Of a stretch of 64,000 bases of DNA, positions 1 to 34,347 are shown one piece after another. This stretch comes from Ascidia mentula. Taxonomy: Eukaryota; Chordata; Ascidiacea; Phlebobranchia; Ascidiidae. Each line of letters begins with the position of its first letter. The stretch's first letter is position 1. The notes beneath the pieces were generated by a model. That model was not told where the DNA came from. It saw only the letters and a program-made list of their open reading frames with translations, and ran no database searches. Position numbers and translations under genes: made by a program. Location: NCBI GenBank assembly GCA_947561715.1, contig OX387197.1, forward strand, positions 23,648,266 through 23,712,265. The letters are read 5' to 3'.

Positions 1-1719
1 GCTGCAGAAACACACCCAAGACTTATCTAAAAACACAAACGTTAAATGTAAAAACAAATTGGTTATGTTAAGTTCCAGATATACAGTGACCATCACTTTT
101 GGTGGATGCATTTTAATTTGTGCGGTGGTTCATTTGTTTATTCATTTTGTTTTAGTGTTGTCCCGTCGATGTTTGCGTGGATTTATGGAAATCGACCGAT
201 TGTTAATTAACATCAAAGCGTTTCGCGGCGCGCAAAGTCTGCGAGATTGACACCCACAATAAAACTGCGTGGGGGTCAAGTCGACCCAAGGGAATTCGCG
301 CATGTCATACGAATTTGAACATGAACCCAGGGCATCCTGTTTTTTTACGAAAAATATACATTTTGGTAAAGTCTACGCAATGCTTCACTGTCGCTCATAT
401 ACACACATTTTGTCCTCAAAACAAATATTTGTTCTGAAAATGTTTCCAAAATAAAGTCTAGAGATGACGTCATATGAAACCTTTCAAAGTGAGACGAAAC
501 GCGTGCTGTCAAGATATTCTGTTCTTTTAGTCAGATTCTCTGTAGTGTTCGTGCCGTGGAAGCATGTAAACCAATAGGCGATTGCTGTATAGCAACATAA
601 ACACGCCTTCCAACTCAAACAAACGCACTATAACGCTCTGACACAAATGTTAGGAATCTCCGGGAGTTTCCCCTTCGAGATAACATGACGATGACGTCAT
701 TGTGGCATGCGGTCGTGACTTGTTCTTCCGTCCGTCCTTCCTCGTCCAATACGTCTTGGTTTAGGCCTGATGTCGTTTAATCGCCGCATTGTCCTTTTGT
801 TTGCCTAATCTGTCCCAAGGCGTGGCCTTTTAGATTGCTTGTGTATATTAGGCAGCGCGATCACTTACCAATCTTGATTGCAAATGAATGACAGATTGCC
901 AGATAGCATCTGAGCGCATTTTGCGCCCACTTAGCGAAGCGCCATGAAATTGATTTGCACCGATATTGATCCAAGACTTTATTGGCTGTCGATAAGTCGC
1001 GGCGAGCCAGTTACTGCCATGCATATGGGTTGGTGCAATATCGTTGCGGCTTCATGGTGGTTTGAGCTTCAGGGTAATTATCACCGGGGAGAAAACAACC
1101 TGCGATATGTAATGATTCCACGAAAAGTCGCTAATGACTTTTGTTTGATAATCCGTGTGCTTAGCGACATTATTTAGGGTTTAAGGTGCTCTATTTGCCT
1201 GACCTGTCGGAAAAGCGCATAGTGTACATTACTTCGCACAAATTTGGAAACAAGCGCTCTATTTTTGCACTAATGAAAATATGATTCCAGGAACGAGCGT
1301 GGAGGGGCATCATGTTGCGTGGATATGTACGTGCTCTTGTGTTTGGTCGTGTTTACGTTCCCTCTTTTTTCCCCATTGTTTATCCATTTGAAACTTGTAA
1401 AGTACAAGCGCTTTTTTGACATCTCCTGAGGAATCGACAACTCGTGATGGGCACCTTCTTTTAGGCGACGCCTTTTTTTCAAACAAAAATTTAAAAATTT
1501 TCTGTTGCGGCGGTGCTAATTTCCTCGGCAAAAGAAATCAGCCTGTCGCCCCATCCAGACACGTCCTTCTCTCCAAAACAGTATGACGTAAAAGTCCGGG
1601 CTGAAATCATGTTTCACCTTACATAACGTGGAACACGCGCCATTTTGTTTTCGAATCTCGCACGAAACTTCTGTGACGTAACGACCCGAGACCTTATTAT
1701 GTTGTGTGTTGTCCAACAG
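1..1719. other. Upstream stretch, no gene established
   Basis: The first recognisable RNF220 exon begins at 1720 in reading phase 1, so at least one earlier coding exon must exist, here or left of the window. I found no upstream exon with homology I could support. The short open frames here have no splice context or recognisable motif, so I call nothing. Confidence 0.4.
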
Positions 1720-4700
1720 GCAAGAGGAGCAGTCCGATGGTAGAAACTTGTCCTGTGTGCGGTGTGACTGTTCGTCCCTCCGAAGTCGCTTCTCACATTC
1801 AACAGGAGCTGGAAAGCCTTGGAAGGATACCGAGGTGATCCACAATATTTTATGTGATTCGCTTGACCACATTTTTTGTTTATGAAACGTGAAGCAAATC
1901 AGACTGGTGATGAGTGATCTTTTAACAATTCTTGCTTGATGTTGGTTGAAACACACACATTGTTAATTGACACTATTAAAATGTATAACGTCATCACTGC
2001 TTTGTTGTAGTTTGCTACCTTTAATATTTACCTGGATCTAAGATGATTCTATATTTTAATATTCTTCTTTTTTAACAATTGCAATTAATCTATTAGTGAA
2101 ACAAAGAGGAAGAACGCCACCTATCGTCGAAGTTCGACAGAACGACGGTCGTCTGTCTTCAGGGGGCAAGGGGTAAGTTGTATTTTTCTATGTAGGCTAA
2201 TTGTGTAAAACATTTGACCCTTAAATAACATAAAACGTATAAAGAAGCAACGAAAATCTTAATCTAAAAATAAGAGCAGCCTCAATGATTGTAAATAGTC
2301 TACTTTGGAAAAACTGCACAACAGGATATCTCGAGGTTATCAACGACCATCGCAATGCCTTCGGACGTGGCAATTAAAAACGTGCATCATTTGTGCGTTT
2401 GTAACCACTTCCAGAAGACACCGCGATACGCGCAATATCGATCTCCCCTCGCGTATGCACACAAGCAGTGCGATAAAACGGTATTCTTTATCCCATCAAC
2501 AAACTGTAGCGGATAAACATAAACGTGCGCTCCAAAAACCGACGCTAATTACCTGCAAGTCGAGTTGGCTTAAACGACAGTTTTGGGGTGCTACATGCAT
2601 GTGAAAGCCGGGACCCCGGCCTATGTTGTGGCCAAAGAGTCAACGGCTTAAGACCTCGTTTCGAGACCGCCAGAATTTTATCACTGATAAATGTTTATCG
2701 TTTTGCAGTCGTCGGCGACCAGCGCGACTTCGAGCAGTAAGAGATTGTCTGATCGTGACCTTTCCCCGAAGACAAACAGGAGTAATCGACTTAAGGTACA
2801 GCAACTTACTGGACAATCATAAATGTTTTTTTAGCAAACACAACCCAAACAATGTAGACGCTTAGGTTAAAAAATACGTTGTTGCTGTCTTAGCTCTTTG
2901 CTTTGTCCTCAATAGAAAACATCAGTAATCTTAGTCTATATTGCAGTTGCGAATCAGTGCGTGTTCTTCCAGTAATTTGTCCGTAAATTTAGAACCTTTT
3001 TAGTATTTGTAATGGACAATAGCGTATTATGTAACGGTAAACCCTGTTATCAACGGAATCAATCGGGGTCGTCTAGGTTTGGAAAACATCGCCTAACGAT
3101 AATTTGATTGCGATGCTGTTTTCGAGAAACGTGACCCGGTGTGTGGTGGCGGTCCATCAGGATTGGGCGCTTGGAGCTCATACGTTTTCTCTTGTTCTTT
3201 CCGCATGGTGGAATGATACTGATGGATTTTATTTTGTATTATATTTATGGATACAGAAAGTAATGGTGGAAGGGGCAAACAAAGTTGCTAAGGTTTATCT
3301 CGCAGGACGTTTAATTAGGATTTCGTGCATCTTTTTATCTCTCTTTTTGAAAGTAAGTTTCTCGCAATATTTATTATTCTTTTGATTACGTCAAGTTATC
3401 ATGCACAGAAGGAGTTTGTTTCTGGTCGTCATGGCCTCACAACACGTTTTCCAATCGACAGTTTGTGTCAACAACATAGTGTATTTAACTTAAGTATACC
3501 GTCGCTATGAAACGTTCCCCAGCCCAGACCCAGTCGGCGACTGATAAGAACTTAACAAGTCTTCGCGTCCAATCAAACGAGCACCGCGTGAGTAATAGAG
3601 TGCACAATCGAAAACCTGGAGCGCCGACCTCGCCAAACATTCCGCCGTTCGATTCCGATACATTATGAAAATCGGGCAACGTTCTGTGATGGCGGCCGCG
3701 CTTATCTGTCTCGACAAACACGAATAAGACGCCCGCGGAAAGTGAGGCAAGTCGATCGGGCAACACAAACTGGCTGTAAATCAGGCGTAAGTGGAGTAGC
3801 ACACGGAGACCGGTGGCACACGGGGGTTGACAACTTTCACCTGTCGTTTGCGCCGACGTCACTTTTCACAAAAAAATACACACACCAAACAGCGCGCCGT
3901 CTTCATGGCAACCTCGCCAGGAGCTTGCGTCACGCCGCGATTGAAAACTAACAAAAATTGCTCTGGAATCACCGGAGCACCTTGCAGAGGTTTATTAATG
4001 GCTCTTTAACTCGCTTCCTTCGTGTCGCCGCCGCATCGCGACCTGCGCGCGAGGTAACGCGTATTTGGCTTGGCACTTGTGGAGCGTCGCTCGGTGTGTT
4101 TGATGATCTCTAGACCCGCCCATCTCGATTTATGGCGTCATTTGTAATGCGAGCTACCGTGTGCTGCGGTTTGCGTGGCGTCTGGACATGTGCCAGCAAG
4201 TCGCAAATACGCTTCTGTTCTCGTGTAACGTCAGCGAAGATCACGACTTTCTGCTGCTTGGCAATAGACAAACTATCGGCCGCGTGTGTTTGCGGCTTGG
4301 AATGCGGTCGTACAAAAACCTCTAGTAAAAGCGCCATACATTAAATTCCAAGTTATCATGATTTTAAATCGCTGTTTAGTATTCTGCACCAGCTCCTGCG
4401 ATTTTCAGGTCTTCCACGCGCCGCCATCTCCTTGGGGTTTAACTACACGAAGGTTTCAAAATGTCGATTAAAAACATGTCGTAATTTCGATTGTGGTTGT
4501 TGCTTTAAATTTAGATAGCTGCACAGTGGGGTGTTCGGCAGATGGCCTCCAGTCGTAAATATGTCAACCCCTATTTCCTGCTTTCGTGAATAAATGTTTG
4601 TTCGCGCCCGAATAATGAATGTTTTTATTTACTTCTCCCATGCTTGCCATTCATCAGAATGCCTTCAGTCCGTTATTTCACCAGCTGGCAAATTTTGCCT

Positions 4701-7399
4701 GTAAACGAATACGTGAGATAAAACTGGCGTCATAAAAAAAAATCCTAAACAAGATTTGTGATCACGAAAATTCCACAATTGTGTTTGTGTGCTCAAAAAA
4801 AAAGAGAAAAAGGAGCAGACAGATTTTCCGAAGCGTCAGGTAAAATTCCCCATTCTTTCTTCTCCAACATCAATTAGACATCACGCTGTTCGCCATACAC
4901 CGGTTTAAACGAGATTACGCGACTTGTGATTTTGCATTCGTTCGACAAACGGATAATTGCTGTTCAACATTAGCGCTTGGGCGGCCGGCTGCGCACCTGA
5001 AATCTAATTAGGCGATCGACCTGCGGCCCGCACCATTCGAAAGGTCGTTATTATTCCGTATGTCGTTCTGCGCTTGTGACGGGTTCGGGTCGCGTGATTT
5101 ATGGCCCGTGGTGCCGTTCGAACACCCCTCGCCGAGAATAAGCCTCCAATTCTTGCCTGTCGACCTGCCCGATAAACGATTTGGCACTTGGTGGATTTCG
5201 AGTAAAGGCCCGCAAGCGATGGGTGATTAATCACCTAAGTTGTGACCGCGGCGCTTTGGAGCTTTGCTCGAGGAACCGTTTAACGAATCTAATGTTATGC
5301 TCACCGAAGCAACGCATTTTTGAGTTCCCCGCTTCCTTGTTGTCGATTTAGATGAATGGATTAGGGCGCCGCGAATTACGTTTGACAGATCGTCGACTTT
5401 GTAAAATGTCCCAGTGGGATTTTCCCAATAGGAGTTCTCGAGACTCGGGTCGAGGTAAAAAGTTCACGGAGCGGCCGAAAGGATTTTGTTGATTTCGAGT
5501 TTTTATTACTTTACATCAACAAGTTTCGGTTACAATTTTTTAACGCTTATTAGTGTTGATATTTTAGTTCACAAACTGCAGTGAAAGATGTTCTTTATAT
5601 GCCCTCGTTGTACCACTGTTTATTAAACAAGGAACAGTTTCTCAGTGTTTGTCTAATGCTGGATATTATGTGGTACATTTTTTATATAACACGTCCATTT
5701 CTGAAAAAACTAAACGTGTCTTGAAAACTTCCGATTCATCTCCATTTCATCTGCGCAGACTTACCATAAAGTGCGAGGCAACAGGATGGACCGCTTGAAT
5801 GCGAGGGTAGGTCACTGTATGCAGCCCACATCCCTCGCGATGTTGGGAGCCACTGGTCGACTTTGGGCCGCGTCGTCCAGCAGCACTGCTTCACATATGG
5901 AGGATACCTGTTGTCCTGTGTGCTCGTCACGCCTGAGCGGTTCGATCGCCAACATGAATGACCACGTGGAGGCGTGCTTGCGCAGGGTAAGTCGCTAATT
6001 GGTTTGTACTGTGTGAACTATCCTTTGGTCTATAAAGAAAAAAACACCGAAATTTTACTATTTTACAAGATGATTTTAGTGGTTGTAACGTGCACGCTTT
6101 CTGAAGCTACAATGATGATACTTTTAGAAAAAATGGAAAATATTTTTATGTGAAAACTAAACAACAACAACACACAAACATGGGTGATATCTTTCAGCAA
6201 AGGGCTACATCGAGACAGTTGGACGAAGACGAGCTTGTTGACGTAGAAGGAAACAACGACAACCCAACAACTCACAACTTCGTGGGTTTAGGCGGCACTG
6301 GATGCAACGACGACGACCGAAGCAACAAGAGTTTTGGTTCTGAGTACGAGTGGTGCGGACAGTCGCGGGTTCGAGTCACGGGGTTTGCTGAGAGCGCCTC
6401 GCGTCTCGCTGTATCTTCCGGTTATCACGTGGTGCGCCCATCGTCGCCCGGCGCTGACCAGGTCAGTTTTCTGACCCGCATGCGATAAGAAAACCTGATC
6501 GGGATTCGTGCCCTGGGTTCAAATCCCGGTATGGTAAACAAAAATAAAAAAAATCTAAAACTAAGACACCACAGAACAATGATGAAACATTTGCTACGTA
6601 TTTTCACAATTCGAACGCTGTTTGATGACACTTAAAAGGTTTGTGTGGGGTACATTGGTCTTTGTGACTGTAGTCCTTGCTGCTGCGTACGGTTTGATAA
6701 TTATTTATGGTTTAGTACTAGAACTGAATTGCAAAATGTTGTAAATACAAAACGGAGCCATGTCATTTTAGTTTTTGAATGTCGAATCGGACGACACCCA
6801 ATGTTTTGGACCAGTGCAGTTTACCGAAGAAGATCTCAACGCTTGTCGAAGTCCCCAAGACCCAAATGAGAGAGGCAGAACTCCAAAATCATCGTAAGAA
6901 TCTCACCATTGAGCAATTTTGCCAAGTTTCCTTTCGCTAAAAAACGTTTCACTCTTTGTTAGAACCAAACCCGGCACTTCGTTTACCCCCACTTGCTCCC
7001 CTGGCGTGGAATCACGTGACGAAACGGATGACTGCCCGCCGTCGCCAAACCAGCACACCACCGAGCAGTCTTTGCGCTGCAACATTTGCATGGTGAGGAA
7101 GTTTCGTTGTTAAAACCAATACCACAAACACTGATAAGAAGGCGCTTTCGTGCGTGTCTCATAATACTAGGTGTTATTCGTGACAAATGATAGTTTTTCA
7201 ACAAAAGCGCCGATATTGTGAAGCTATTTCTTCATCATGTTCGTGTTTACAGGACACATACACCGACCCGGTTGCCTCGATCCAGTGCTGGCACGTGCAC
7301 TGTGAACGTTGTTGGCTACGAGCGCTTGCTGTGAAAAAGCTGTGCCCTCAGTGCAACGCAATCACTACTGCCACCAAGCTGCGAAGAATTTTTCTTTGA
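1720..7399 (+). CDS. RNF220: RNF220-type RING E3 ubiquitin ligase, 5' end missing
   Basis: Eight exons keep phase throughout: 1720-1834, 2097-2172, 2709-2795, 5759-5986, 6198-6461, 6772-6893, 6963-7092 and 7253-7399, giving 389 residues plus the stop. The first exon carries a CPVC zinc finger followed by RPSEVASHIQQELE, like the N-terminal finger of RNF220. The 5759 exon encodes VRGNRMDRLNARVG and a second finger (CPVC...HVEAC). The 6198 exon has EDELVDVEG and EYEWCGQ. The RING is split after NICM and continues DTYTDPVASIQCWHVHC to CPQC, ending LRRIFL, very close to vertebrate RNF220. RNF220 family ligases act with E2 enzymes on nuclear and signalling substrates. The first exon starts in phase 1, so an upstream exon is missing. 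A poly(A) signal AATAAA lies at 7722. The human coiled coil before the RING is not evident. Confidence 0.9.
2796..5758 (+). other. Large RNF220 intron, no embedded gene seen
   Basis: This 2.96 kb intron separates the third and fourth recognised RNF220 exons. Short open frames are present on both strands but none has matching splice sites and family motifs. The left edge of the segmental duplication falls near its 3' end at about 5530, so the duplication begins within this intron. Confidence 0.6.
6463..6572 (+). mobile_element. Possible tRNA-derived SINE fragment in an RNF220 intron
   Basis: The matching intron of unit 2 (after 13136) lacks roughly 75 bp present here. The extra sequence contains GGTTCAAATCC at 6516-6526, a match to the RNA polymerase III B box, followed by an A-rich tract (AAAAATAAAAAAAATC). 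That is the layout of a truncated tRNA-derived SINE. No convincing A box is visible, so it may be a 3' fragment. The insertion is supported by the paralogous empty site; its identity is inferred. Confidence 0.45.
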
Positions 7400-8285
7400 T
7401 TGTCGGTTAGACTCCGTGTTTTTCGGTGTACACAAACTTTTTCGTGTGTGCATGTAGCCTCATCGCTTTACATTGAGGTCAATTTAATCGGTGTCTTACA
7501 GTGTTTCCCAATCCGGAAGGTACAAAGTTTTGTGTTGCATGGGGAGGTATGAAAAGATGGTCACGGAGAGAAATGTATCGAAAAAGTTTTCGAAACACTG
7601 GTCTGAAGATACAAGATAAATATCGCTACAAAGCGTTGTTGTATTCATAGAGTATTATTTGTGGTGTGGTCACTTTCAAGCGAATATATTTTGCCTGTGC
7701 GTTGTGTGATTGTAACGTTTAAATAAAATTCCTACACGATGACAAGGAGTAAAAAAGTTTGTTTTAAAAGTAGGGAAGACAAATGCTTGCAAATCTTCTA
7801 TGAAAACTGATCTGATCCTTGATCTGGGTTTATGAATTCCACCCTTAGGCTCTTTATTTGTGACCTTAGTGAATTGTATGGTTGCAAATATACAAAAAAA
7901 GTTTGGATGAGGAAGAAAGTAAAGTTGTTAATTTTGTCATTTTTGAGGCAGGGAAAACACCGCCCGCTCCAACAGACATTTGCGTTGCGATTTTTTCTGC
8001 TGATTGAAGTGTTGGCCGTTTGGCCCACTTTGAGTTTCGATAAACTTTTTAATTAGAAAGAAACTTAGCTAAATAGTAAGTGACATTTTAAAACAACCTG
8101 ACAGTAGTGTTGCAAAATAAAATTTAATTGAGTCTGGGAGGCAATTCAGTACAGTACATTTAATGCATCAGAAAACGGCCGGAATATAGGTGTATAAAAC
8201 AAACAAACAATTATTTTTTCTCATCTAATTTACTCAGATTTTTATATATCCAAATTGTCCAACTCTTAAAATTTTGAGCATTGCA
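7400..8285 (+). other. RNF220 3' flank and spacer before the PNGase F-like gene
   Basis: It holds the probable RNF220 3' UTR with a poly(A) signal AATAAA at 7722-7727. About 110 bp before that signal (7632-7740) is sequence also found at the end of the FHIT unit 2 copy. The last 200 bp are AT-rich; a pyrimidine stretch ending TTTACTCAG at about 8238 could be a splice acceptor for a 5' UTR exon or trans-spliced leader. Confidence 0.5.
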
Positions 8286-10355
8286 ATGAAATCAATAGCT
8301 GTCTTGGAATGTTTCTGTTTCTTTTTTGCTTCTGTTGTGGCTGTTAACAGATTACGATCCACACTCAGCTCTACTACAGAGAGTCACAACTTTCTTGACT
8401 CAAAAGATAGTGAACTTCACATAAAGGCCAGCTCCTTCAAACCTGGCTCAGCAGCACAACCTTTTGATCTTTGGACTCTCAGAAAGGGAATGGTAAAGTA
8501 CCCCAGTGATGCCTTTCCAAACGGTGTCCCAGTTGGGCTTCATGCTTTCTCCAATGAATCTGCTTTCCTGGAATGTATGTGGACTAGCAGTGACTCTCTT
8601 GCAGACTTTGTTAAAACAGCACCAATTGATGCTCGCTACGTATTTATGACCTTTGAGAAAAATGCTGTGGATGTAGTTACTAGGATGGAATCAACATTAA
8701 ATAATGCCTTGGACAATTCTAATCTATCCCAAGTAGACCAGGAAACTTTCCGCAAACATTCTTATTTTGTTGTTACACCAGTCGATGAGATGGGAAACTG
8801 GATAACATCCTTGCTAAATGCTTGGTCTTGCAGTGGTCACGGCTGTGGGTACGACCAAATACTTTTCCATTCTGAGCAATGGTTCCCACAAGTCAATACA
8901 ATCAAGCGTCTTGATGCTAGATATGATTGGGCCTTTAATCATCAGTGGACCCCTAAAACTGCTACTTTGTCACCAGTAACAAACCCTTGCATCTCAGATA
9001 ACCTTGGGGCATTTAAAAATGGTACAGTAGCAGTAATTTCTGCCTCAGAAACCGGCTGCTCAATTGGAACCAGTGTTGCAAATTTGCAAGAAGCTGGAGC
9101 TGTCGGTGTTATTGCATACTCCATGAATGGAGAGCCAGTTAAAGAATTAAACTGCATTGGTGATGAGTGCAACACTATGATAAATATACCTGTCATGAGC
9201 ATTGACTTCAATCAAAAACTTATTGATGCATTAAACAAAGGAAAAGATGATGTCACCGCTACACTGCAAACAACACCATCCCCAAACTTCTACTTTACAA
9301 TAGACAGCAATGGAAATCTAGCAGAAGCAGGCTGGTTTTTATACCCTTCTCTTCAGTTTTTAGCTTGGCAAATGCAGTGGCTTGAGTATGTGCGTGCACT
9401 TCAAAATAACATATCTAGCTTGAATGATTATGTAGTTCCAGTCTTTAATAATACAAAAATGCAAGGCAAAAATGGTACAGGATACACTGTGTTAGAACTC
9501 AAAGACTTGCATCTTTATGAGTCACTGTACCTGGACATGCATTTAGGATGTCCTGGAGATATGGACGAGGATTGCCCACCATGGGATCACACTCCAACTT
9601 TGTATGTTTCTTGTAACAAATCCTCCTCTTCGATGGTGGAAATTGGAAGATGGATTACTGCATTTCGTCGAAGAATCGGTCACTGGTTGACTGATATAAC
9701 ACCTTTGCTCCCAGTACTGGCATCTTCACAAGATACGTCTCAGTGCACATTCCTTCTAAAAATGTCTTCCTGGTGGGCACAACCATGGCTTGCAACCCTA
9801 AATCTCAGATTTGTACGAAAACCACACTCATTTAGTGTTGTCGGAGGTTGGTCAAATAACTTGGCAGTGCTGTACCCATATACAGTCTTACCTCTATTTC
9901 AAGGAGGCACGTTTGACAAGACATATAACCAAAAATACAAACCCTACCCTCTTAAAGTACCCAGTGGCACCAAGCAAGTGAAGATTTATGCAGTCATCAC
10001 AGGGCATGGGTCAGACAATAACAACTGTGCTGAGTTTTGTGTGACATCCCATCATTTCACTGTCAATAATAAGACATATATCAAGACCTTCAGCAATGCT
10101 GGCACACCATTAGGTTGTGCTGAGCGTGTACCACAGGGAGTTGTACCCAATGAGCACGGGACATGGCTGTATGGTAGAGATGGTTGGTGTGATGGCCAGC
10201 AAGTGGACCCATGGATTTTTGACATCACAAGTGACTTGTCTATGACCTCAACCAATTCTATTTCTTATCAGGGCCTGTTCAATGGCCATGATCCAAGTCC
10301 TACACAGAATCCAGGCATTATAGACATGGTGTCATATGTTGTTTTCTATCATTAG
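8286..10355 (+). CDS. Secreted PNGase F-like protein with PA domain, copy 1
   Basis: One uninterrupted frame of 689 codons from ATG 8286; the frame stays open only 12 bases upstream and has no other ATG there. Residues 1-22 form a hydrophobic signal peptide. Residues about 40-215 belong to no family I recognise. Residues about 225-335 resemble a protease-associated (PA) domain (GTVAVI, LQEAGAVGVIAYS, IPVMSI). Residues about 395-689 resemble both PNGase F domains: CPPWD (Asp434) followed by YVSCN and EIGRWIT, then ITGHG, CAEFC (Glu583), VNN, GCAERV and GRDGWC. By memory of bacterial PNGase F, Asp434 and Glu583 match the catalytic Asp60 and Glu206, while the Glu118 position appears to be Ser. 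PNGase F releases N-glycans by cleaving the Asn-glycan amide bond; activity here is inferred. It is unusual in having no introns among intron-rich neighbours. Confidence 0.85.
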   Translation: MKSIAVLECFCFFFASVVAVNRLRSTLSSTTESHNFLDSKDSELHIKASSFKPGSAAQPFDLWTLRKGMVKYPSDAFPNGVPVGLHAFSNESAFLECMWTSSDSLADFVKTAPIDARYVFMTFEKNAVDVVTRMESTLNNALDNSNLSQVDQETFRKHSYFVVTPVDEMGNWITSLLNAWSCSGHGCGYDQILFHSEQWFPQVNTIKRLDARYDWAFNHQWTPKTATLSPVTNPCISDNLGAFKNGTVAVISASETGCSIGTSVANLQEAGAVGVIAYSMNGEPVKELNCIGDECNTMINIPVMSIDFNQKLIDALNKGKDDVTATLQTTPSPNFYFTIDSNGNLAEAGWFLYPSLQFLAWQMQWLEYVRALQNNISSLNDYVVPVFNNTKMQGKNGTGYTVLELKDLHLYESLYLDMHLGCPGDMDEDCPPWDHTPTLYVSCNKSSSSMVEIGRWITAFRRRIGHWLTDITPLLPVLASSQDTSQCTFLLKMSSWWAQPWLATLNLRFVRKPHSFSVVGGWSNNLAVLYPYTVLPLFQGGTFDKTYNQKYKPYPLKVPSGTKQVKIYAVITGHGSDNNNCAEFCVTSHHFTVNNKTYIKTFSNAGTPLGCAERVPQGVVPNEHGTWLYGRDGWCDGQQVDPWIFDITSDLSMTSTNSISYQGLFNGHDPSPTQNPGIIDMVSYVVFYH

Positions 10356-10520
10356 AGATGCATTTGATTGAATGTCATTCATATTATATGCAATTATGTT
10401 TACTATTATATATATGTTGACAATTTGTTATTTCTTCATTTGGCACTTTTGTTTCATGTTGTATATCAACAATTTTAATTACCATTCTTTTTGTTTGCAT
10501 AGGTATTATAACAAAAAATT

Positions 10521-11532
10521 ATGTCATCATCAGTTTTGAAATTTGGCACAAAACTAATTCCAGTTTCAACAACCTTTCTACAAACTAGCCTTAGCTATGC
10601 TGTTGTAAACATCAAACCTATCCTTCCAGGACGTATCCTTTATGATTCATGGTTGAATTTACTTGCGTTTTGCCATGTCGCAAAATTGAGATCAATTCTA
10701 AAATGAGTTTTTGTTGCAAAATCCGTCAGAGATGGAACAACACCAACATTAAAATCGAATCTAAAAGTTTTGTGTATATCTTTACGGGGGGTGCTTGCCG
10801 CATGCCGAAATGTAGAAAAATCGACAAAGATTGAAGTTTAATGGAACCTTGACGTAAGTTTGAAAGATGTCCTCGTGTGCTCCCAGCGGCCTGTGGCCAG
10901 ATTCAAAGATCTACGGTCGGAGGAAGTCTCGGATTTGTTCCTGTGTGCGCAGCGTGTTGCCAATGTCGTGGAAAAAGTGTACAACGCTACTTCTGTAACC
11001 ATGGCAGTGCAGGTGTGTCTGGAGCCCTTGGCGTCGAGTAATTTAAAATGAAGGGAAATGTAGACGATACATTATCCATCATGGCCACATTGTAAACAAT
11101 GCATACGTCTACAAGACTTGACCAAAGCTTTATATTATTCGACAGGATGGTCCAGAGGCCGGACAGACCATACGACATGTACACGTGCACGTTTTACCCA
11201 GAAAGGCTGGTGACTTTTTTATGAACGACGACATTTACACAGAGGTAAGGAAAACAAGTATAAAAAATCTAATATGCGTTGTCGTTAAACATATAAATAA
11301 CGCCACCGCTAATGTGGTTCGTCCGTGGTATCACCCGTTGATAATTTTGTTTAAACCGCTTGGTGGCTCTAAGGAGCAATACGTTTTGTAACGTACGTAT
11401 TTTTTCACTGTTGCTTGGCAGTTGCAAAAACACGATAAACCAGACGAAGACGAAAACGTAAAAGGTTTAAGATCGTTAGCCGATATGGAAGAGGAGGCAA
11501 CAAAATTGCGCAAATCAATGGAAAGGGAATGA
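10521..11532 (+). CDS. FHIT: FHIT, diadenosine-triphosphate hydrolase, intact copy
   Basis: Four exons: 10521-10632, 10867-11012, 11146-11244 and 11422-11532, predicting 155 residues (human FHIT is 147). The N-terminus FGTKLIPVS...[14 protein letters not shown] matches the FHIT start. Exon 2 reads [20 protein letters not shown]. Exon 3 carries the histidine triad [14 protein letters not shown], whose central His is the nucleophile that hydrolyses Ap3A. Exon 4 has [11 protein letters not shown] and [15 protein letters not shown], like the FHIT tail. All junctions are GT-AG and in phase. The ATG lies only 165 bp after the PNGase F-like stop, just downstream of a strong acceptor-like TTTTTGTTTGCATAG (ending 10501), which would fit an operon-like or trans-spliced arrangement; that is inference. 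The poly(A)-containing tail kept by the second copy is absent here. Confidence 0.93.
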
Positions 11533-12313
11533 CGTCATGTTGATGTGCGGGTCACAAAATGGATCTTTTTTATCAAATTTTCCAATGAACAATGGAAGAT
11601 TTCACGCCTTGCGCGGGCCTTCATAAATTTAGGCAATTTTCATGTGAAAACTGTTACCTTGCTTTTTTTCGAAAAAAAACAATACCCTTTACTCTTTACC
11701 TGCAAGTTAAAAACCCTGACAAAGGTTTTGTCCATCCTAACAGAAGTGAAATATCGCTGATAATCATATACTTACACCTGAACGGCAACTGGGGAGCAAA
11801 ACAGGTTTGTGCGTCACAAAGGCTATTATTGTGCTGCCTTTTTTACTATTGGGTCAGCGCTAATACAATCATTGAGATTATTTCTAAATTACCTGTGGTA
11901 AAGCGTTGTTGTTTGCATACAAAGTGTTATGTGTGGGCCTCTATGTAGAGCCGATATGGACAAACTTTGGTCTGCTGTGGCAAACCTTTTGGTCTCGTTC
12001 GCCAAACATGGTACAAATACAGTGGCGTCTGGAAAATTGTCAGACAATTTTTTATTCTGGGTTAACAATTTTTTGACGCCTATTATTGTAAATATTTTGG
12101 TTCACAAACTACAATGAAAGATGCTCTTATTTATATGCCCTCGTTGTAAATGTTTTTTTTAAACACGGATCAAAAGTTTCTTAGTGGTAGGCTAATGCTA
12201 GATATTATGTGGTACATTTTTTATATAATACATCCATGTCGTGCCAACTGACAAAACTAAACGTGTCTTGAAACTTTCCAAACTCCCGATTCATCTCCAT
12301 TTCCTCTGCGCAA

Positions 12314-14060
12314 ACCTACCATAAAGAAAGAGGCAACAGGATGGATTGTTTGAATGCGAGGGTAGGTCACTGTATGCAGCCCAGAACCCTCGCGATGTTG
12401 GGAGCCACCGGTCGTCTTTGGGTCGCGTCGTCCAGCAGCACTGCTTCACATATGGAGGATACCTGTTGTCCTGTGTGCTCGTCACGCCTGAGCGGTTTGA
12501 TCGCCAACATGAATGACCACGTGGAGGCGTGCCTGCCTAGGGTAAGTCGGTGGTTGGTTTGCACTCTGTGAATTATCTAAAGTGGTGGCTGATGGCTGAA
12601 CTGTAAAGATGAAAAACACGCATGGATGTCTGTACCTTGCGAATCTATGTATAAAAAGTTTAAGTGTCCCGATCGTATGCTATTTTACAAGACGATTTTA
12701 GTGGTTGTAACGTGCACGTTTTCTGCAGCTACAATGATCACACTTAAATATTTATGTGAAAACTAAACAACACACACAAATTGGCCAATTTGCAGGCTTC
12801 ATTGCACGCCATCCGAAAATGTCCTGATAATCGTCCAAAAAATTAGCCCTAAACATGGTTTATATCTTTCAGCAAGGGGCTACATCGGGACAGTTGGACG
12901 AAGACGAGCTTGTTGACGTTGAAGGAAACAACGACAACCCCACAACTCACAACTTCGTGGGTTTAGGCGGCACTGGATGCAACGACGACGACCGAAGCAA
13001 CAAGAGTTTTGGTTCTGAGTACGAGTGGTGCGGACAGTCGCGGGTTCGAGTCACGGGGTTTGCTGAGAGCGCCTCGCGTCTCGCGACATCTTCCGTTTAT
13101 CAAGTGGTGCGCCCATCGTCGCCCGGCGCTGATCAGGTTGGTTGTTTGTTGACACCGTTGCTTGATAGAACAATGATAAAACATTTGCTACGTATTTCCA
13201 CAATACGAACGCTGTTTAGTGACACTTGAAAGGTTTTCTGTGGCGTACATTGGTCTTTGTTACTGTAGTCCTTGCTGCTGCGTACGGTTTAATAATTATC
13301 AATGAATTTGTGGACCAGTCCAGTTTACCGAAGAACGCTTGTCGAAGTCCCCCAGAACCAACTGAGAGAGGCAAAACTCCAAAGTCATCGGAAGAGTCAT
13401 GCCATTTCGCAGTTTGCCAAGTTTTCTTTCGCTAAACTACGTTTTTCTCTTTGGCAGAACCAGACAACTGAGAAAGGCAAAACTCCAAAATCATCGTAAG
13501 AGTCTCGCCATTTGCGCAGTTTGCCAAGTTTTCTTTCGCTAAACTACGTTTCACTCTTTGGCAGAACCAAACAACTGAGAAAGGCAAAACTCCAAAATCA
13601 TCGTAAGAGTCTCGCCATTTGCGCAGTTTGCCAAGTTTTCTTTCGCTTACCACCACTTGCTCGCCCGGCGTGGAATCACGCGATGACAAGGATGACTGCC
13701 CGCCGTCGCCAAACCAGCACACCACCGAGCGGTCTTTGCGCTGTAACATTTGCATGGTGAGGAAATTTCGTTGTTAAACCAATACCACAAACACTGATAA
13801 GAAGGCGCTATTGTGCGTGTCTCATAATATTGGGTTTTGTTCGTGATAAATTATTTCGTTTACAGAATTGGCAAAATTGTGGAGCTATTTCTTCATCATG
13901 TTTATGTTTACAGGACACATACCCTGACCCGGTTGCCTCGATCCAGTGCTGACACGTGCACTGTGAACGTTGTTGGCTACGAGCGCTTGCTGTGAAAAAG
14001 CTGTGCCCTCAGTGCAACGCAATCACTACTGCCACCAAGCTGCGAAGGATTTTTCTTTGA
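12314..14060 (+). pseudogene. RNF220 3'-end duplicate, decayed
   Basis: This copy has only the last five exons, so it never had the N-terminal finger. The acceptor matching 5757-5758 reads CGCAAA instead of CGCAGA. The exon ending 12541 still codes the second finger, and 12873-13136 is a full-length open match to the 264-nt exon. The next exon lacks its acceptor and first third, has lost about 8 nt before NACRSP (frameshift), and its donor GT is changed to GG (TCATCGGAAGAG). Part of it plus intron is repeated three times. The RING exon 13914-14060 is otherwise open, but the codon matching Trp of QCWHVHC is TGA at 13950-13952. Any protein would lose the RING. Confidence 0.9.
13353..13648 (+). 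repeat. Three-copy tandem repeat of about 100-107 bp
   Basis: Copies begin at about 13353, 13455 and 13562, each starting CAGAACCA and running through GGCAAAACTCCAAA and GCCAAGTTTTCTTTCGCTAA. Unit 1 has one copy at the matching place (about 6865-6965), where it spans an RNF220 exon end, a short intron and the next acceptor. The triplication therefore arose after the segmental duplication, in the dead copy. The last two copies are nearly identical. Confidence 0.85.
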
Positions 14061-15174
14061 ATGTTTGTTGGATTCTGTGTTTTTCGGTGTACGCAGACTT
14101 TTTCGTGTGCGCATGGAGCCTCATTGCTTTACATTGAGGTCGGTTTGATCAGTGTCTTAATCTGGAGCAGTGTTTCCCAACCAGGGAGAAGTAAAGTTTT
14201 GTGTTGCACAGTGAGGTATGAAAAGTTGAAACATGGACATAGAGAGAAATACATTTAAAAAGTTTGCATAATACTGGTCTTGAGAAACAAGATAAATATT
14301 GCTATGAAGAGTTGTTGTATTCATGCAGAGTATTATTAGTGGTGTTGGTCACTTTCAAGCGAATATATTTTGCCTGTGCGTTGTGTGATTGTAACGTTTA
14401 CATAAAATTCCACCGCGTTGACGACGGGTAAAACGGTTGTTTTGAAAGTTGGAAAGACAAATGCTTGCAAATCTTTGGCTTTTTATTTGTGACCCTTATA
14501 AATTGTATCGTTGCAAATATATAAAAAAAGTTTAAGATAAAAATAAAGTAAAGTTGTTAATTTTGTGGCAGGAAAAACACCGCCCGCTCAAGCAGCGGAA
14601 GATACCCTGACTAAAGAACGAGGGCATCGACGCAAACCAGATTATGACGTCACAATCAGTTTTAACAATGGCCAAGGTTGTGCGTGCAGCAGACATTTGT
14701 GTGGCACTATTCAGCTAACTTTCTTTCAAACTAAAAATATTTGCTTATCGAAACCAAACATGGGCCAAACGACCAGCCAACAATCCAACGATCGCAACGC
14801 AACTGAAAATGTCACCTATTATGTGCCACACGTTTGTGTGACATTTTCAGTTGCGTTGCGATTGTTGGCTGGTCGTTTGGCCAATGTTTGGTTTCGATAA
14901 GCAAACCTGTTTAGTTTAAAAGAAAGTTTGCAAAGTGTGTGACATTTTAAAACAATATTGCACTAGTGAGGCAAAATAAAATTTAATTGAGTGTGGCTGT
15001 TGGTGTATGGCAATTGTCTGTGCTAGTTCAGTACATTAGTAATGCATCAGAAAATAACTGGAATATAGGTGCATAAAACAAACAATCAATTATTTTTTCT
15101 ACATCTTATTTACTTAGATTTTCGTATATGCAACTATTAAAATTCAGGCAACTATTAAAATTTTGAGCATTACG
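14061..15174 (+). other. Spacer between RNF220 pseudogene and PNGase F-like copy 2
   Basis: Collinear with 7400-8285 but longer. It keeps the 3' UTR-like segment (TTGTGTGATTGTAACGTTTA at about 14380), although AATAAA has become CATAAA there. Around 14600-14930 it holds extra sequence not found in unit 1, including the long inverted repeat listed separately. The open frame across 14565-14900 is created by that repeat and is unlikely to be a gene. Confidence 0.6.
14718..14927. repeat. Long near-perfect inverted repeat (hairpin)
   Basis: Left arm 14718-14815 and right arm 14838-14927 are reverse complements with few mismatches (for example TTTGCTTATCGAAACCAAAC against GTTTGGTTTCGATAAGCAAA), around a spacer of about 22 bp. 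The right arm is the part related to unit 1 (about 7980-8060); the left arm is an inverted copy not present there. A transcript would form a stem of about 90 bp upstream of the second PNGase F-like gene. Confidence 0.9.
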
Positions 15175-17241
15175 ATGAAATCAAAAGCTGTCTTGGAATG
15201 TTTTTGTTTGTTTTTTGCTTCTGCTGTGGCCGTTGACAGAATACGATCCACACTCAGCTCTACTACAGAGAGTCACAACTTTCCCAACTCAAAAGATAAT
15301 AAATTTTACATGAAGGCCAAGTCCCTTAAACCTGGCTCAGCAGCACAACCTTTTGATCTTTGGACTCTCAGACAGGGAATGGTAAAGTACCCCAGTGATG
15401 CCTTTCCAAACGGTGTCCCAGTTGGGCTTCATGCTTTCTCCAATGAATCTGCCTTCCTGGAATGTATGTGGACCAGCAGTGCCTCCCTTGCAGACTTTGT
15501 TAAAACAACACCAATTGATGCTCGCTACATATTTATGACCTTTGAGAAAAATGCTGTGGATGTAGTTACTTGGATGGAATCAACATTAAATAATGCCTTG
15601 GACAATTCTAATCTATCCCAAGTAGACCAGGAAACTTTCCGTAAGCATTCTTATTTTGTTGTTACACCAGTCGATGAGATGGGAAACTGGATAACATCCT
15701 TGCTAAATGCTTGGTCTTGCAGTGGTCACGGCTGTGGGTACGACCAAATACTTTTCCATTCTGAGCAATGGTTCCCACAAGTCAATACAATCAAGCGCCT
15801 TGATGCTAGATATGATTGGGCTTTTAATCATCAGTGGACCCCTAAAACTGCTACTTTGTCACCAGTAACAAACCCTTGCATCTCAGATAACCTAAAGGCA
15901 TTTAAAAATGGCACAGTAGCAGTAATTTCTGCTTCAAAAACTGACTGCTCATTTGGAATCAGTGTTGCAAATTTGCAAGAAGCTGGAGCTGCAGGTGTTA
16001 TTGCATACTCCATGTATGGAGAGCCAGTTAAAGAACTAAACTGCATTGGTGATGAGTGCAACACTATGATAAATATACCTGTCATGAGCATTGAGTTCAA
16101 TCAAAAATTTATTGATGCATTAAACAAAGGAAAAGATGATGTCACCGCTACACTGCAAACAACGCCATCTCTAAACTTCTTTACAATAGACAGCAATGGA
16201 AATCTAGCAGAAGCAGGCTGGTTTTTATACCCTTCTCTTCAGTTTTTAGCTTGGCAAATGCAGTGGCTTGAGTATGTGCGTGCACTTCAAAACAACATAT
16301 CTAGCTTGAATGATTATGTAGTTCCAGTCTTTAATAATACAAAAATGCAAGGCAAAAATGGTACAGGATACACTGTGTTAGAACTCAAAGACTTGGATCT
16401 GTATGAGTCACTGTACTTGGACATGTATTTAGGATGTCCTGGAGATATGGATAAGGATTGCCCACCATGGGACCACATTACAACTTTGTATGTTTCTTGT
16501 AACAAATCCTCCTCTTCCATGGTGGAAATTGGAAGGTGGATTTCTGCATTTCGTCGAAGAATCGGTCACTGGTTGACTGATATAACACCTTTGCTCCCAC
16601 TACTGGCATCTTCGCAAGATACGTCCCAGTGCACATTCCTTCTAAAAATGCCTTCTTGGTGGGCACAACCATGGCTTGCAACCCTAAATCTCAGATTTGT
16701 ACGAAAACCACACTCATTTAGTGTTGTCGGAGGGTCGTCAAATAACTTGGCAGTGCCGTACCCATATACAGTCTTACCTCTATTTCAAGGAGGCAAGTTT
16801 AACAAGACATATAACCAAAAATACAAACCCTACCCTCTTAAAATACCCAGTGGTACCAAGCAAGTGAAGATTTATGCAGTCATCACAGGGCATGGGTCAG
16901 ACAATAACAACTGTGCTGAGTTTTGTGTGACATCCCATCATTTCACTGTCAATAATAAGACATATATCAAGACCTTCAGCAATGCTGTCACATCATTAGG
17001 TTGTGCTGAGCGTGTACCACAGGGAGTTGTACCCAATGAGCATGGGACATGGCTGTATGGTAGAGATGGTTGGTGTGATGGCCAGCAAGTGGACCCATGG
17101 ATTTTTGACATCACAATGGACTTGTTTATGACCTCAATCAATTCTATTTCTTATCAGGGCCTGTTCAATGGCCATGATCCAAGTCCTACACAGAATCCAG
17201 GCTTTATAGACATGGTGTCATATGTTGTTTTCTATCGGTAA
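15175..17241 (+). CDS. Secreted PNGase F-like protein with PA domain, copy 2
   Basis: Single-exon paralogue of the 8286 gene: 688 codons from ATG 15175, one codon shorter (FYFT to FFT near residue 304). The two proteins are very similar along their length; differences are scattered substitutions such as NRLRST to DRIRST, ETGCSIG to KTDCSFG and HLYES to DLYES. The signal peptide, PA-like segment, CPPWD and CAEFC motifs and all cysteines I compared are kept, and the Ser at the third putative catalytic site is shared (MPSWWA against MSSWWA). It has no stop or frameshift, unlike both neighbours in this unit, so selection appears to have kept it. Expression could rely on its own promoter because the upstream pseudogene is broken. 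A functional enzyme is inferred from conserved motifs only. Confidence 0.85.
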   Translation: MKSKAVLECFCLFFASAVAVDRIRSTLSSTTESHNFPNSKDNKFYMKAKSLKPGSAAQPFDLWTLRQGMVKYPSDAFPNGVPVGLHAFSNESAFLECMWTSSASLADFVKTTPIDARYIFMTFEKNAVDVVTWMESTLNNALDNSNLSQVDQETFRKHSYFVVTPVDEMGNWITSLLNAWSCSGHGCGYDQILFHSEQWFPQVNTIKRLDARYDWAFNHQWTPKTATLSPVTNPCISDNLKAFKNGTVAVISASKTDCSFGISVANLQEAGAAGVIAYSMYGEPVKELNCIGDECNTMINIPVMSIEFNQKFIDALNKGKDDVTATLQTTPSLNFFTIDSNGNLAEAGWFLYPSLQFLAWQMQWLEYVRALQNNISSLNDYVVPVFNNTKMQGKNGTGYTVLELKDLDLYESLYLDMYLGCPGDMDKDCPPWDHITTLYVSCNKSSSSMVEIGRWISAFRRRIGHWLTDITPLLPLLASSQDTSQCTFLLKMPSWWAQPWLATLNLRFVRKPHSFSVVGGSSNNLAVPYPYTVLPLFQGGKFNKTYNQKYKPYPLKIPSGTKQVKIYAVITGHGSDNNNCAEFCVTSHHFTVNNKTYIKTFSNAVTSLGCAERVPQGVVPNEHGTWLYGRDGWCDGQQVDPWIFDITMDLFMTSINSISYQGLFNGHDPSPTQNPGFIDMVSYVVFYR

Positions 17242-17383
17242 TGATGCATTTGATTGAATGTCATTGATATTAGATGCAATTATGTTTACTATTATATATA
17301 TGATGACAATTTGTTATTTCTTCATTTGCCCACAATTTTAATTTTCATTCTTTTTGTTTGCATAGGCTTTATAACCAAAAATT

Positions 17384-18853
17384 ATGTCATCATCAGTGTT
17401 GAAATTTGGCACAAACCAGTCTTAGCTATGCAGTTGTAAACATCAAACCTATCTTTCCAGGACGTATCCTTTGTGATTCATGATTGAATTTACTTGTGTT
17501 TTGCCATGTCACAAAATTGAGATCAATTCTGAATTGAATTTGCAAAATCCATCAGAGTCAGAACAACACCAACATTAAAATCAAATCTCTAAGTTGTAGG
17601 GAATTCGGCTTGTCACACTTCGAAACATTTTAATATTTTGTTTCAACTTTTGAAACTGCTTTCTAATCTTTAAATTTTGTCTTTCTGGCGCCTTCGCTAG
17701 TTATCTAGATTGCATTACGTCTTTCAACTTGCGCTAATTTTTCTAAGTTTCCTTTGTCGCGTAATCGCAGCTATTATTTCTTTGTTTCTGCCTCGAGACT
17801 TTGATATTTGCGATTCTTTCCACAAATAAACAGATCACGGAGTTCGATCCCAGATCTCTGTTTTGGTCTTAGACCGAGCTTCGCTCCTCTGAAGAACAGA
17901 CCATCGGTGTCGGTACCTCCTGCCAACATGCTGGTATCAGAAGCTTGATGTCGGGTCTTCGGCTATGCAGAACCCTTCAAAGTGTTGTGTATAATTTTCC
18001 TTGCCACATGCCAAAATATTAAAAAATCAGCAAAGCTTCAAGTTTAATGTAGCCTTGACTTAAGTTTGTAAGATGTCCTCGTGTGCTCCCAGCGGTCTGT
18101 GGCACTGTTCAAAGAACTGCGATCGGAAGAAGTTTCGGATTTTTCCTGTGGGCGCAGCGTGTTGCCAATGTCGTGGAAAAAGTGTACTATGCTACATCTG
18201 TAACTGTTGCAGTACAAGTGAGTCTGGAACCCTGGGCGCCGAGCAAGAAGAAAATCTGAAGGTATAATAACGTGTAATGCAGACGATACATTATCCCTTA
18301 TTTTATCTGTAGACATTGAGCGGTGTATTCGTCATAAATGGTATGACAAAAACTATTGCATTTGTTTTTTATGGTAATGCACTGCCATCGAACGTGACAA
18401 AAATTGTGTTGAGGCCTTATCGTAACAATGCATACGTCTACAGGACTTGACCAAAGACTCATGTTATTCGACAGGATGGTGCAGAGGCCGGACAGACCAT
18501 ACGACATGTACACGTGCATGTTTTACCCAGAAAGGCTGGTGACTTTTTTTATGAACGACGACATTTACACAGAGGTAAGGAAAACAAGTATAAAAAATCT
18601 AGTATGCGTTGTCGTTGAACATATAAATAACGCCACCGCTAATGTGGTTCGTCCGTGGTATCACCCGTTGATAATTTTGTTTAAACCGCTTGTTGGCGCA
18701 ATACGTTTTGTAACGTACGTATTTTGTCACTGTTGCTTGGCAGTTGCAAAAGCACGATAAACCGGACCAAGACGGAAACAAAAAGGTTCAAGATCGTTAG
18801 CCGATATGGAAGAGGAGGCAACAAAATTGCGCAAATCAATGGAAAGGGAATGA
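17384..18853 (+). pseudogene. FHIT duplicate, frameshifted
   Basis: The four exon equivalents are 17384-17463 (80 nt against 112 in the intact gene, a 32-nt deletion), 18073-18217 (145 against 146), 18475-18574 (100 against 99, one extra T in the T-run) and 18744-18853 (110 against 111, causing an early stop). Every exon therefore carries an indel not divisible by three. Splice sites and the histidine triad codons remain, so the decay is recent. The first intron carries an inserted element. The 3' flank keeps an AATAAA at 19319 that the intact copy has lost. Confidence 0.95.
17595..17985 (+). mobile_element. Inserted LTR-like element in FHIT pseudogene intron
   Basis: The matching intron of unit 1 (10633-10866) lacks about 390 bp found here. 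The insert begins TGTAGGGAATTC and a TG...CA-bounded piece ends CTGCCAACA at 17928. It is followed by TGGTATCAGAAGC at 17932-17944, which resembles an initiator-tRNA primer-binding site of LTR retrotransposons. It includes an AATAAA. This fits a 5' LTR plus primer site from a truncated element. Short similar flanks (AAGTTG and AAGTGTTG) may be a target duplication. No coding part remains. Confidence 0.5.
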
Positions 18854-19218
18854 CGTCATGTTGATGTGCGGGTCACAAAATGGACGTTTTTATCAAATTT
18901 TCCAATAAACAATGGAAGATTTCACGCCTTGCGTAGGCCTTCATAAATTTAGGCAATTTTCATGTGAAAACTGTTGCCTTGCTTTTTTTCGAAAAAGAAA
19001 ACAATACCCTTTACTCTTTACCTGCAAGTAAAAAAACCCTGGCAAAGGTTTTGTCCATCCTAACAGAAGTGAAATATCGCTGATAATCATATACTTACAC
19101 CTGAACGGCAACTGGGGAGCAAACCAGGTTTGTGCGTCACAAAGGCTATTATTGTGCTGCCTTTATAACTATTGGGTCAGTGCTAATATAATGATTGATA
19201 ATACTTCTATATTACCTG

Positions 19219-19340
19219 TGGTAAAGCGTTGTTGTATGCATACAAAGTGTTATGTGTGGTCTTAGTCAACTTCAACCCAATATATGTCCCCCTGTGCGTG
19301 GTGTGATTGTAACGTTTAAATAAAATTACCACACAACAAC
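19219..19340 (+). repeat. Shared 3'-end segment with poly(A) signal
   Basis: This segment after the FHIT pseudogene (AAAGCGTTGTTGTATGCATA to GTGTGATTGTAACGTTTAAATAAAATT) resembles the ends of the RNF220 copies at 7632-7740 and about 14306-14410. A truncated version follows the intact FHIT at about 11897-11940. The similarity is too long for chance and links the 3' ends of two unrelated genes. Confidence 0.7.
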
Positions 19341-33537: not shown

Positions 33538-34205
33538 TCAAACACACTCTTCAAAGCCTACCTTAAATTCAAAGTACAAATAATGGAAACGTCCAAACGT
33601 ATTCAATATGTTACCCGCTGACGCCACATAGCGGTACAGCCCACAATTATGCTCCTTACACAAAAGGAGCACGCGGTGGCATTGCGAACTGGTCCGGGCT
33701 GCCTTTTTTATATTCCACAGAGACATATAATTTACAATGAAGTGCAAATTGCCACAACCATTGCTGGTTTTTGCGTAAGCTCTGAAAGCGCATTATTACA
33801 AATCAGAAACAAATACGCGAGATGATTCAGCACTCGCACAACAAGTTTTCTGAATTTCTATGGTTTTGCACGCAAACAAATTTGCATGTAAACCCCATCC
33901 CGTTTACATTTTTGCCAGATTTCCGCCTTGTTTGTTTAACAGGCGCAATGATGAGGTTCAAAAGCGAAAATACAAATTACCAACAACCTGTGATCGAGCC
34001 GGGAGAGAAAAGGGCGACTTCCTGCGGATGTTTCGATCAAACTGCAAACAAAGTAACACGCGGCGGTGACGTTCTCTTTCACATTTACCGAGCGCCCGAT
34101 TTGAATTACCACCACTATCGCAACCACCAGCAGCATCTGCAGCTGCAAACAGACGAGCGCATCACGGCTTGCACTGCGAGCATCTGCTCTCTTTGAGGAA
34201 GCCAA
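33538..34205 (-). other. Candidate exons of a second minus-strand secreted gene
   Basis: On the minus strand near 34137 the frame reads MLLVVAIVVVIQIGRS and then meets a GTAAAT donor, which looks like a signal-peptide exon. Another frame (33747 to about 33612) with KKAARTSSQCHRVLLLCKEHNC ends at a GTAACA donor. These could belong to a gene related in layout to the one starting at 30650, but I could not join them in phase. Confidence 0.2.
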
Positions 34206-34347
34206 CTTCCGTCGATCAATAAACCGAATGAGGCGATTGCGTTGCTTCCTCCTCAGAGATGATCTTCGGTCCAGGAAGCGGCCCGGGATAATTGTTGCTG
34301 CAGTTACTGCTCTGTAACTACGCTATTTAGTTGATTTGAGAAAATTA

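What the first reader, a model, noticed from the sequence alone, without database searches (positions are those of the whole stretch)
8286..17241. Only the PNGase F-like genes survive intact in both copies of a three-gene duplication
The duplicated block carries RNF220, PNGase F-like and FHIT. In unit 2, RNF220 and FHIT have multiple disabling changes while about 2.07 kb of PNGase F-like coding sequence has none. If unit 2 were neutral, an open frame of this length would be expected to have acquired lesions at the rate seen in the 435-nt FHIT remnant (four indels). This points to selection for two secreted glycan-active proteins, either for dosage or for divergence.
Basis: partly seen in the sequence, partly recalled or inferred. 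Interest (0 to 1): 0.8.

Follow-up and report, generated by a model that had tools for sequence, protein, structure and literature searches.

The report
Duplicated sea-squirt acid PNGase (Ngly2) gene
A sea squirt carries two side-by-side copies of a gene for a sugar-removing enzyme, both still readable while the neighbours copied with one of them have broken down, but the usual test for selection cannot show that both are needed because the copies have probably been partly rewritten from each other and the second is changing faster.

Summary
A tandem duplication (unit 1 ~5528-11936, unit 2 ~12060-19259) in an ascidian carries RNF220 3' exons, a single-exon PNGase gene and FHIT. Both PNGase ORFs are open (689 and 688 aa; one in-frame codon lost). 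FHIT-2 has four frameshifting indels. RNF220-2 lacks upstream exons and has one nonsense codon in the exons examined, so "multiple disabling changes" is overstated. The gene is an orthologue of zebrafish Ngly2, a lysosomal acid PNGase; all six active-site residues checked are kept in both copies. The selection argument is only partly supported. Pairwise dN/dS is 0.44 for PNGase, yet lower for the pairs with a broken member (RNF220 0.31, FHIT 0.16), so it is not diagnostic. Silent divergence is mosaic (0.155, 0.081, 0.240, 0.040), with low blocks crossing gene edges, as gene conversion gives. Absence of lesions since that resetting is still unlikely under neutrality (P about 0.001-0.01; 0.07 on nonsense alone), and unit-2 replacements avoid conserved sites (P 0.016). 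But copy 2 has 21 derived changes to 7 in copy 1, with a lineage dN/dS near 0.85 (0.49-1.48). Best reading: a retained, relaxed second copy. Not shown: dosage selection or present function.

The parts
5528..11936 (+). Duplication unit 1: RNF220 3' exons, PNGase (Ngly2-like) copy 1, FHIT copy 1
   Evidence: self-BLAST and global alignment
12060..19259 (+). Duplication unit 2: RNF220 3' fragment, PNGase copy 2, FHIT pseudogene
   Evidence: self-BLAST and global alignment
8286..10355 (+). PNGase / Ngly2-like copy 1, single exon, 689 aa
15175..17241 (+). PNGase / Ngly2-like copy 2, single exon, 688 aa, intact ORF; model matches zebrafish Ngly2
1677..1835 (+). Open stretch holding an upstream RNF220 exon (CPVC motif near 1749; exon limits not set), outside the duplication
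   Evidence: motif recognised from recalled human RNF220
5795..7399 (+). RNF220 copy 1, last four coding exons (5795-5987, 6196-6463, 6995-7093, 7253-7399; inner limits approximate), RING exon and stop intact
12350..14060 (+). RNF220 3' fragment in unit 2 (approximate limits): no upstream exons, nonsense codon at 13950-13952 in the RING exon
10521..11532 (+). FHIT copy 1, four exons (10521-10632, 10867-11012, 11146-11244, 11422-11532), intact 155 aa
17384..18853 (+). FHIT pseudogene, exons about 17384-17463, 18073-18217, 18475-18574, 18744-18853 (read off the alignment), four frameshifting indels
8343..10762 (.). Block of low silent divergence (0.081) between units, probable conversion tract; spans most of the PNGase CDS, the intergenic gap, FHIT exon 1 and part of intron 1
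   Evidence: found in 3 of 4 alignment settings
11135..11936 (.). Block of low silent divergence (0.040), probable conversion tract; FHIT exons 3-4, intron 3 and 3' flank
   Evidence: found in 4 of 4 alignment settings
11900..11936 (.). First 37 bp of an interspersed repeat cut off at the right edge of unit 1; longer copies at 7621-7770, 14297-14448, 19223-19364

Best explanation
An ascidian Ngly2 gene (acid, PNGase F-type peptide:N-glycanase) was copied with its neighbours in a tandem duplication that started inside RNF220 and ended just past FHIT. RNF220-2, without its upstream exons, could not make the normal protein; FHIT-2 stayed under selection for a time and then broke. Gene-conversion events between the units rewrote patches, including most of the PNGase coding block and the 3' end of FHIT. 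Since then both PNGase copies have stayed translatable. Copy 1 is under clear purifying selection; copy 2 is probably still a coding gene but under much weaker constraint, with about three times as many derived protein changes. Biochemically both should be enzymes with a signal-like N-terminus that cut the N-glycan amide bond through the conserved Asp/Glu pair at acid pH, as in zebrafish. Shown here: duplication, intact frames, lesions, mosaic divergence, asymmetric protein change, conserved active site, predicted fold of copy 2. Inferred: conversion as the cause of the mosaic, coding retention of copy 2, enzymatic activity, signal peptide, lysosomal location.
For: Homology of copy 1 to zebrafish Ngly2 (9lwg, E 1e-169), Pfam N-glycanase N and C plus PA in both copies, model of copy 2 matching 9lwg with TM 0.82 by query and 0.91 by target, six of six checked active-site residues kept in both copies. 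Lesion-free copy 2: under neutrality 2.7 stops and 4.8 frameshifts expected, P 0.0014 (0.010 if only a third of synonymous change is in copy 2); indels per substitution 1:85 against 44:460 in noncoding DNA, P 0.013. Copy-2 replacements avoid conserved sites, P 0.016. Asymmetry: 21 against 7 derived changes, P 0.013; branch lengths 0.065 against 0.0094. FHIT-2 selected before it broke: 12.2 replacement changes in both lineages against 26.8 expected in one neutral lineage, P 0.0012. Mosaic silent divergence with edges off gene borders.
Against: Copy-2 lineage dN/dS of 0.85 (0.49-1.48) does not exclude neutrality; total replacement change in the PNGase pair (52.5) is no less than one neutral lineage alone would give (46.2). 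Nonsense-only test is weak (P 0.07). RNF220-2 exons also show no indel (0:31) and only one nonsense, though not functional in the normal way. Copy 2 changed near-invariant positions (G606V, P608S) and lost Y336, present as Y in 10 of 10 ascidian-side sequences (Phallusia and nine others) and Y or F in 13 of 14 others. Model confidence is low in loops beside the catalytic Glu of copy 2 (577-581, 604-606, 624-629), without a copy-1 model for comparison. The PNGase block was not split off in one of four alignment settings. No expression data, no outgroup DNA.
Confidence: 0.6

Rival explanations
1. Copy 2 is a neutral passenger. Gene conversion from copy 1 reset its coding sequence, and too little time has passed for a disabling change.
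For: Conversion-like blocks; copy-2 lineage dN/dS compatible with 1; replacement change as expected with one neutral lineage; changes at near-invariant sites; pairs with a certain broken member have lower pairwise dN/dS than PNGase.
Against: About 7.6 lesions expected for the synonymous change seen since resetting, none found (P 0.0014-0.010); replacements avoid conserved sites (P 0.016); the still younger FHIT 3' block already has 6 indels per 30 substitutions against 1 per 85 in PNGase (P 0.0026).
Confidence: 0.22
2. One reading: both copies are kept by strong selection for dosage or for a new role, in a block otherwise left to decay.
For: Both frames intact, active site conserved; lesion deficit.
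Against: Equal constraint is contradicted by 21 against 7 derived changes; RNF220-2 decay follows from missing upstream exons and needs no contrast in selection; the FHIT pair has dN/dS 0.16, so its second copy was itself under selection before it broke.
Confidence: 0.1
3. The second unit is an assembly artefact: two haplotypes laid end to end.
For: I could not check reads, and ascidians are recalled as highly heterozygous.
Against: Noncoding divergence near 16%, insertions of up to 367 bp, four frameshifts in one FHIT copy, mosaic divergence and a unit that starts inside RNF220 and ends in or near a repeat are unlike simple alleles.
Confidence: 0.05
4. Low synonymous divergence in PNGase reflects selection on codons, not gene conversion (a rival to the conversion step only, not exclusive of the readings above).
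For: RNF220 exons have similar synonymous divergence (0.099), and one of four alignment settings does not split off the PNGase block.
Against: Codon bias is weak (ENC 52-54), and the low block continues into mostly noncoding DNA at 10356-10710 (0.093 against 0.214 just beyond, P 2e-4).
Confidence: 0.12

Closest known systems
Ngly2, acid PNGase of zebrafish (si:dkey-256h2.1, PDB 9lwg; PMC12753239)
   Same: Near whole-length homology, same Pfam domains, predicted fold, Asp421/Glu555, Trp420, His422, His546, Trp480 all conserved; the paper's text lists Ascidiacea among groups with orthologues.
   Different: Two tandem copies here, one exon each; 44% identity; activity, pH optimum, ovary expression and lysosomal location untested in this animal.
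Ngly2-like protein of Phallusia mammillata (P0003)
   Same: Closest protein found, 68% identity, similar length (692 aa), same domains.
   Different: The two window copies group together to its exclusion, so the duplication, or the last conversion, appears to post-date the split.
Duplicate ngly2 in five ray-finned fish (PMC12753239)
   Same: Second copies of the same gene were already predicted in five fish species.
   Different: Presumably independent (not tested); here tandem, with broken neighbours and conversion-like blocks.
Bacterial PNGase F
   Same: PNGase domain fold and catalytic Asp/Glu.
   Different: Lacks the thioredoxin-like and PA domains and prefers neutral to alkaline pH.

Membership tests
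Ngly2 (animal acid PNGase) | N-glycanase N and C domains (PF09112, PF09113) with a PA domain upstream | tested here: met
   both copies at or above Pfam cut-offs; PA exactly at the cut-off (23.9 bits) in copy 1
Ngly2 (animal acid PNGase) | N-terminal thioredoxin-like domain without Cys-X-X-Cys | tested here: met
   copy 1 aligns to 9lwg from residue 50, copy-2 model matches over 649 columns; the domain was not scored on its own; no CxxC anywhere in either copy
Ngly2 (animal acid PNGase) | Catalytic Asp421/Glu555 and Trp420, His422, His546, Trp480 | tested here: met
   6 of 6 in both copies and in 26 of 26 aligned sequences
Ngly2 (animal acid PNGase) | Groups with metazoan Ngly2 in a tree | tested here: met
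   joins the Phallusia sequence (support 100) among 24 homologues chosen by me; some deeper nodes weak (support 28-70)
Ngly2 (animal acid PNGase) | PNGase activity at acid pH, lysosomal location, homodimer | not testable with these tools
   needs protein and cells
Tandem duplicate retained by selection | Intact frame where neutral lesions are expected | tested here: met
   P 0.0014-0.010; nonsense alone P 0.07, and RNF220 alone as yardstick P 0.25
Tandem duplicate retained by selection | dN/dS of the second copy below 1 | tested here: inconclusive
   0.85 (0.49-1.48); site-avoidance test P 0.016
Gene-converted paralogues | Blocks of low silent divergence with edges independent of gene borders | tested here: met
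   four segments, split gains 30.4, 12.9, 9.9 against a 95% permutation level of 5.0 computed for the first split; PNGase block in 3 of 4 alignments, FHIT block in 4 of 4

The most novel reading that the evidence does not exclude
The two copies have decayed in complementary places and work as a heterodimer. Copy 1 has lost a near-invariant Trp (W133R) in the thioredoxin-like domain, which makes the dimer contact in zebrafish; copy 2 keeps that Trp but has changed near-invariant residues in the catalytic half (G606V, P608S) and lost Y336. Each would then need the other, which would explain why both frames persist although copy 2 is loosely constrained.
Probability: 0.05. Interest if true: 0.55.

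Novelty: new member of a known kind. Interest (0 to 1): 0.27.

Why it matters
It is a small, well-bounded case showing that pairwise dN/dS can mislead: the two pairs with a broken member look more constrained than the intact one, because constraint in one copy and earlier history dominate the ratio. It also adds a tandem pair to Ngly2, a recently identified animal enzyme tied to free glycans in fish eggs, in a group of animals whose eggs can be studied.

Tried and rejected
Rejected: pairwise dN/dS as proof of selection on both copies (controls go the other way). Rejected: RNF220-2 decay as a sign of contrasting selection, since it lacks upstream exons and its exons show low divergence like PNGase. 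Rejected: a retrocopy origin of copy 2, since introns of FHIT and RNF220 and flanks are duplicated with it. Considered: repeat-mediated duplication; the right edge of unit 1 lies 37 bp inside a repeat, but no matching repeat was found at the left edge, so it stays open. Led nowhere: literature searches for related genes in ascidians or PNGase-like genes (listings only) gave nothing beyond the zebrafish paper found; a claim that no more is in print rests on these five searches of an open-licence library. The window's own assembly could not be searched.

Limits of the numbers: noncoding counts in the lesion test (44 indels, 460 substitutions, 33 frameshifting lengths, added up by me) include a poorly aligned RNF220 intron (137 substitutions). 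The segmentation left out 6464-6994. The neutral replacement ratio used for FHIT and RNF220 is that of the PNGase codons. The polarisation uses proteins only, with one close outgroup: of 50 differing columns 21 point to copy 2, 7 to copy 1, 4 and 4 lean, 14 are unresolved. Of 216 hits 120 were listed; I chose 24 for the main alignment and 33 for the one used for the model.
Full report
What it is. The species is not known to me. Copy 1 matches zebrafish Ngly2 over residues 50-688 (9lwg, 1e-169), both copies carry N-glycanase N and C and PA domains, and copy 2 is predicted to fold like 9lwg (mean pLDDT 81.8; TM 0.82 by query, 0.91 by target). The zebrafish enzyme is an acid PNGase that co-localises with a lysosomal marker and is expressed almost only in ovary; of that paper I read the abstract, the first of three parts of the Results, the catalytic-site section, the Discussion and found passages (PMC12753239). 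Residues matching Trp420, Asp421, His422, Trp480, His546 and Glu555 are present in both copies and in all 26 aligned sequences.

The duplication. Self-comparison gives collinear blocks from 5528-11936 to 12060-19259. Unit 2 begins inside RNF220. An upstream RNF220 exon within 1677-1835 (CPVC motif, recognised from recalled human sequence) has no second match in the window by tblastn, and 1-5527 has no match in 11937-19400 by blastn, so the second RNF220 has no copy of the upstream part. Pfam recognises RNF220 and a RING finger in the joined exons of copy 1. FHIT copy 1 is intact over four exons with GT/AG junctions. FHIT-2 has four frameshifting indels and RNF220-2 one nonsense codon.

Pairwise rates. 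NG86 values: PNGase dS 0.076 (0.050-0.103), dN 0.033, ratio 0.44 (0.28-0.70); YN00 and ML give about 0.55 and 0.57. RNF220: dS 0.099, ratio 0.31 (0.14-0.65). FHIT: dS 0.231, ratio 0.16. The pairs with a broken member thus look more constrained than the intact pair (replacement to silent changes 52:33 against 28:34 for both, P 0.066; against FHIT alone 12:19, P 0.037; against RNF220 alone 16:15, P 0.40). A copy neutral since the duplication should by itself give about 26.8 replacement changes in FHIT, 21.3 in RNF220 and 46.2 in PNGase; both lineages together show 12.2 (P 0.0012), 16 (P 0.15) and 52.5. So FHIT-2 was under selection for much of its life and broke late, while for PNGase this measure gives no sign of constraint on the second copy. 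Pairwise dN/dS cannot decide the question.

Mosaic. Silent and noncoding differences split into four segments: 5532-8340 at 0.155, 8343-10762 at 0.081, 10763-11134 at 0.240 and 11135-11936 at 0.040; log-likelihood gains of the splits were 30.4, 9.9 and 12.9, against a 95% permutation level of 5.0 and a maximum of 6.6 in 100 shuffles, computed for the first split. Three of four alignment settings return four such segments; the fourth returns only the 11135 border. Edges do not follow gene borders: the PNGase block runs on through the intergenic gap into FHIT intron 1 (10356-10710: 0.093, against 0.214 beyond, P 2e-4), and the FHIT block covers an intron and 3' flank. Codon bias is weak (ENC 52-54). 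Gene conversion is the simplest cause; direction cannot be told without an outgroup.

Is copy 2 kept? Using only change accumulated in the PNGase coding sequence itself, a neutral copy 2 should carry about 2.7 stops and 4.8 frameshifts; none is present (P 0.0014; 0.010 if copy 2 holds a third of the synonymous changes; 0.0038 with an indel rate from the broken-copy exons; 0.073 on stops alone). Indels per substitution are 1:85 in PNGase, 44:460 in noncoding DNA (P 0.013) and 6:30 in the younger FHIT block (P 0.0026); RNF220 exons at 0:31 show that a non-functional copy can also lack indels (P 0.10). Twenty copy-2 replacements fall on less conserved sites than random mutation would (mean conservation 0.550 against 0.680, P 0.016; at sites at least 90% conserved 3 against 6.9 expected, P 0.048); they are not milder by BLOSUM62 (P 0.34). 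The seven copy-1 replacements show the same (0.435 against 0.683, P 0.009).

Asymmetry. With the Phallusia protein as outgroup, 21 changes (20 replacements, one codon loss) are derived in copy 2 and 7 in copy 1 (P 0.013; counting leaning sites 25 against 11, P 0.029); branch lengths are 0.065 and 0.0094. Splitting silent changes evenly gives dN/dS 0.85 (0.49-1.48) for copy 2 and 0.29 (0.12-0.61) for copy 1. Copy 1 is not pristine: W133R changes a residue kept in 23 of 24 other sequences, aligned with zebrafish Trp135, inside the thioredoxin-like domain (residues 58-185 and 319-343 in the paper).

Verdict. The sequence observation stands with a correction on RNF220. The inference to selection for two enzymes is weakened by conversion, by the control pairs and by the asymmetry, but not removed. 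A retained, relaxed second copy is the best account; a recently reset neutral passenger is the main rival.

Noticed in passing
7621-7770, 14297-14448, 19223-19364, 11900-11936: Interspersed repeat of about 150 bp; the copy at the right edge of unit 1 is cut after 37 bp, at the duplication breakpoint.
   Followed up: partly
14714-14931: Inverted repeat with 72-nt arms, 92% complementary, about 240-460 bp upstream of the copy-2 start codon; unit 1 has only a 106-bp, 74% match (7977-8077). Looks like a small mobile element near its promoter.
   Followed up: no
13359-13647: 107-bp tandem repeat, 2.7 copies, in an RNF220 intron of unit 2; about one copy in unit 1.
   Followed up: no
17596-17963: Insertion of about 367 bp in FHIT intron 1 of unit 2; no other copy found in the window.
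   Followed up: no
55647-57380: 577-codon open frame rich in Lys and Ser, with a second Lys-rich frame at 57535-57891; no Pfam match at E 0.01.
   Followed up: partly
35574-38549: Run of long minus-strand frames, rich in Ser and Pro with PLDL- and PIDLS-like motifs; no Pfam match at E 0.01 for the three frames tested.
   Followed up: partly
34000-52000: G+C of 46-52% against about 34-46% in the rest of the window.
   Followed up: no
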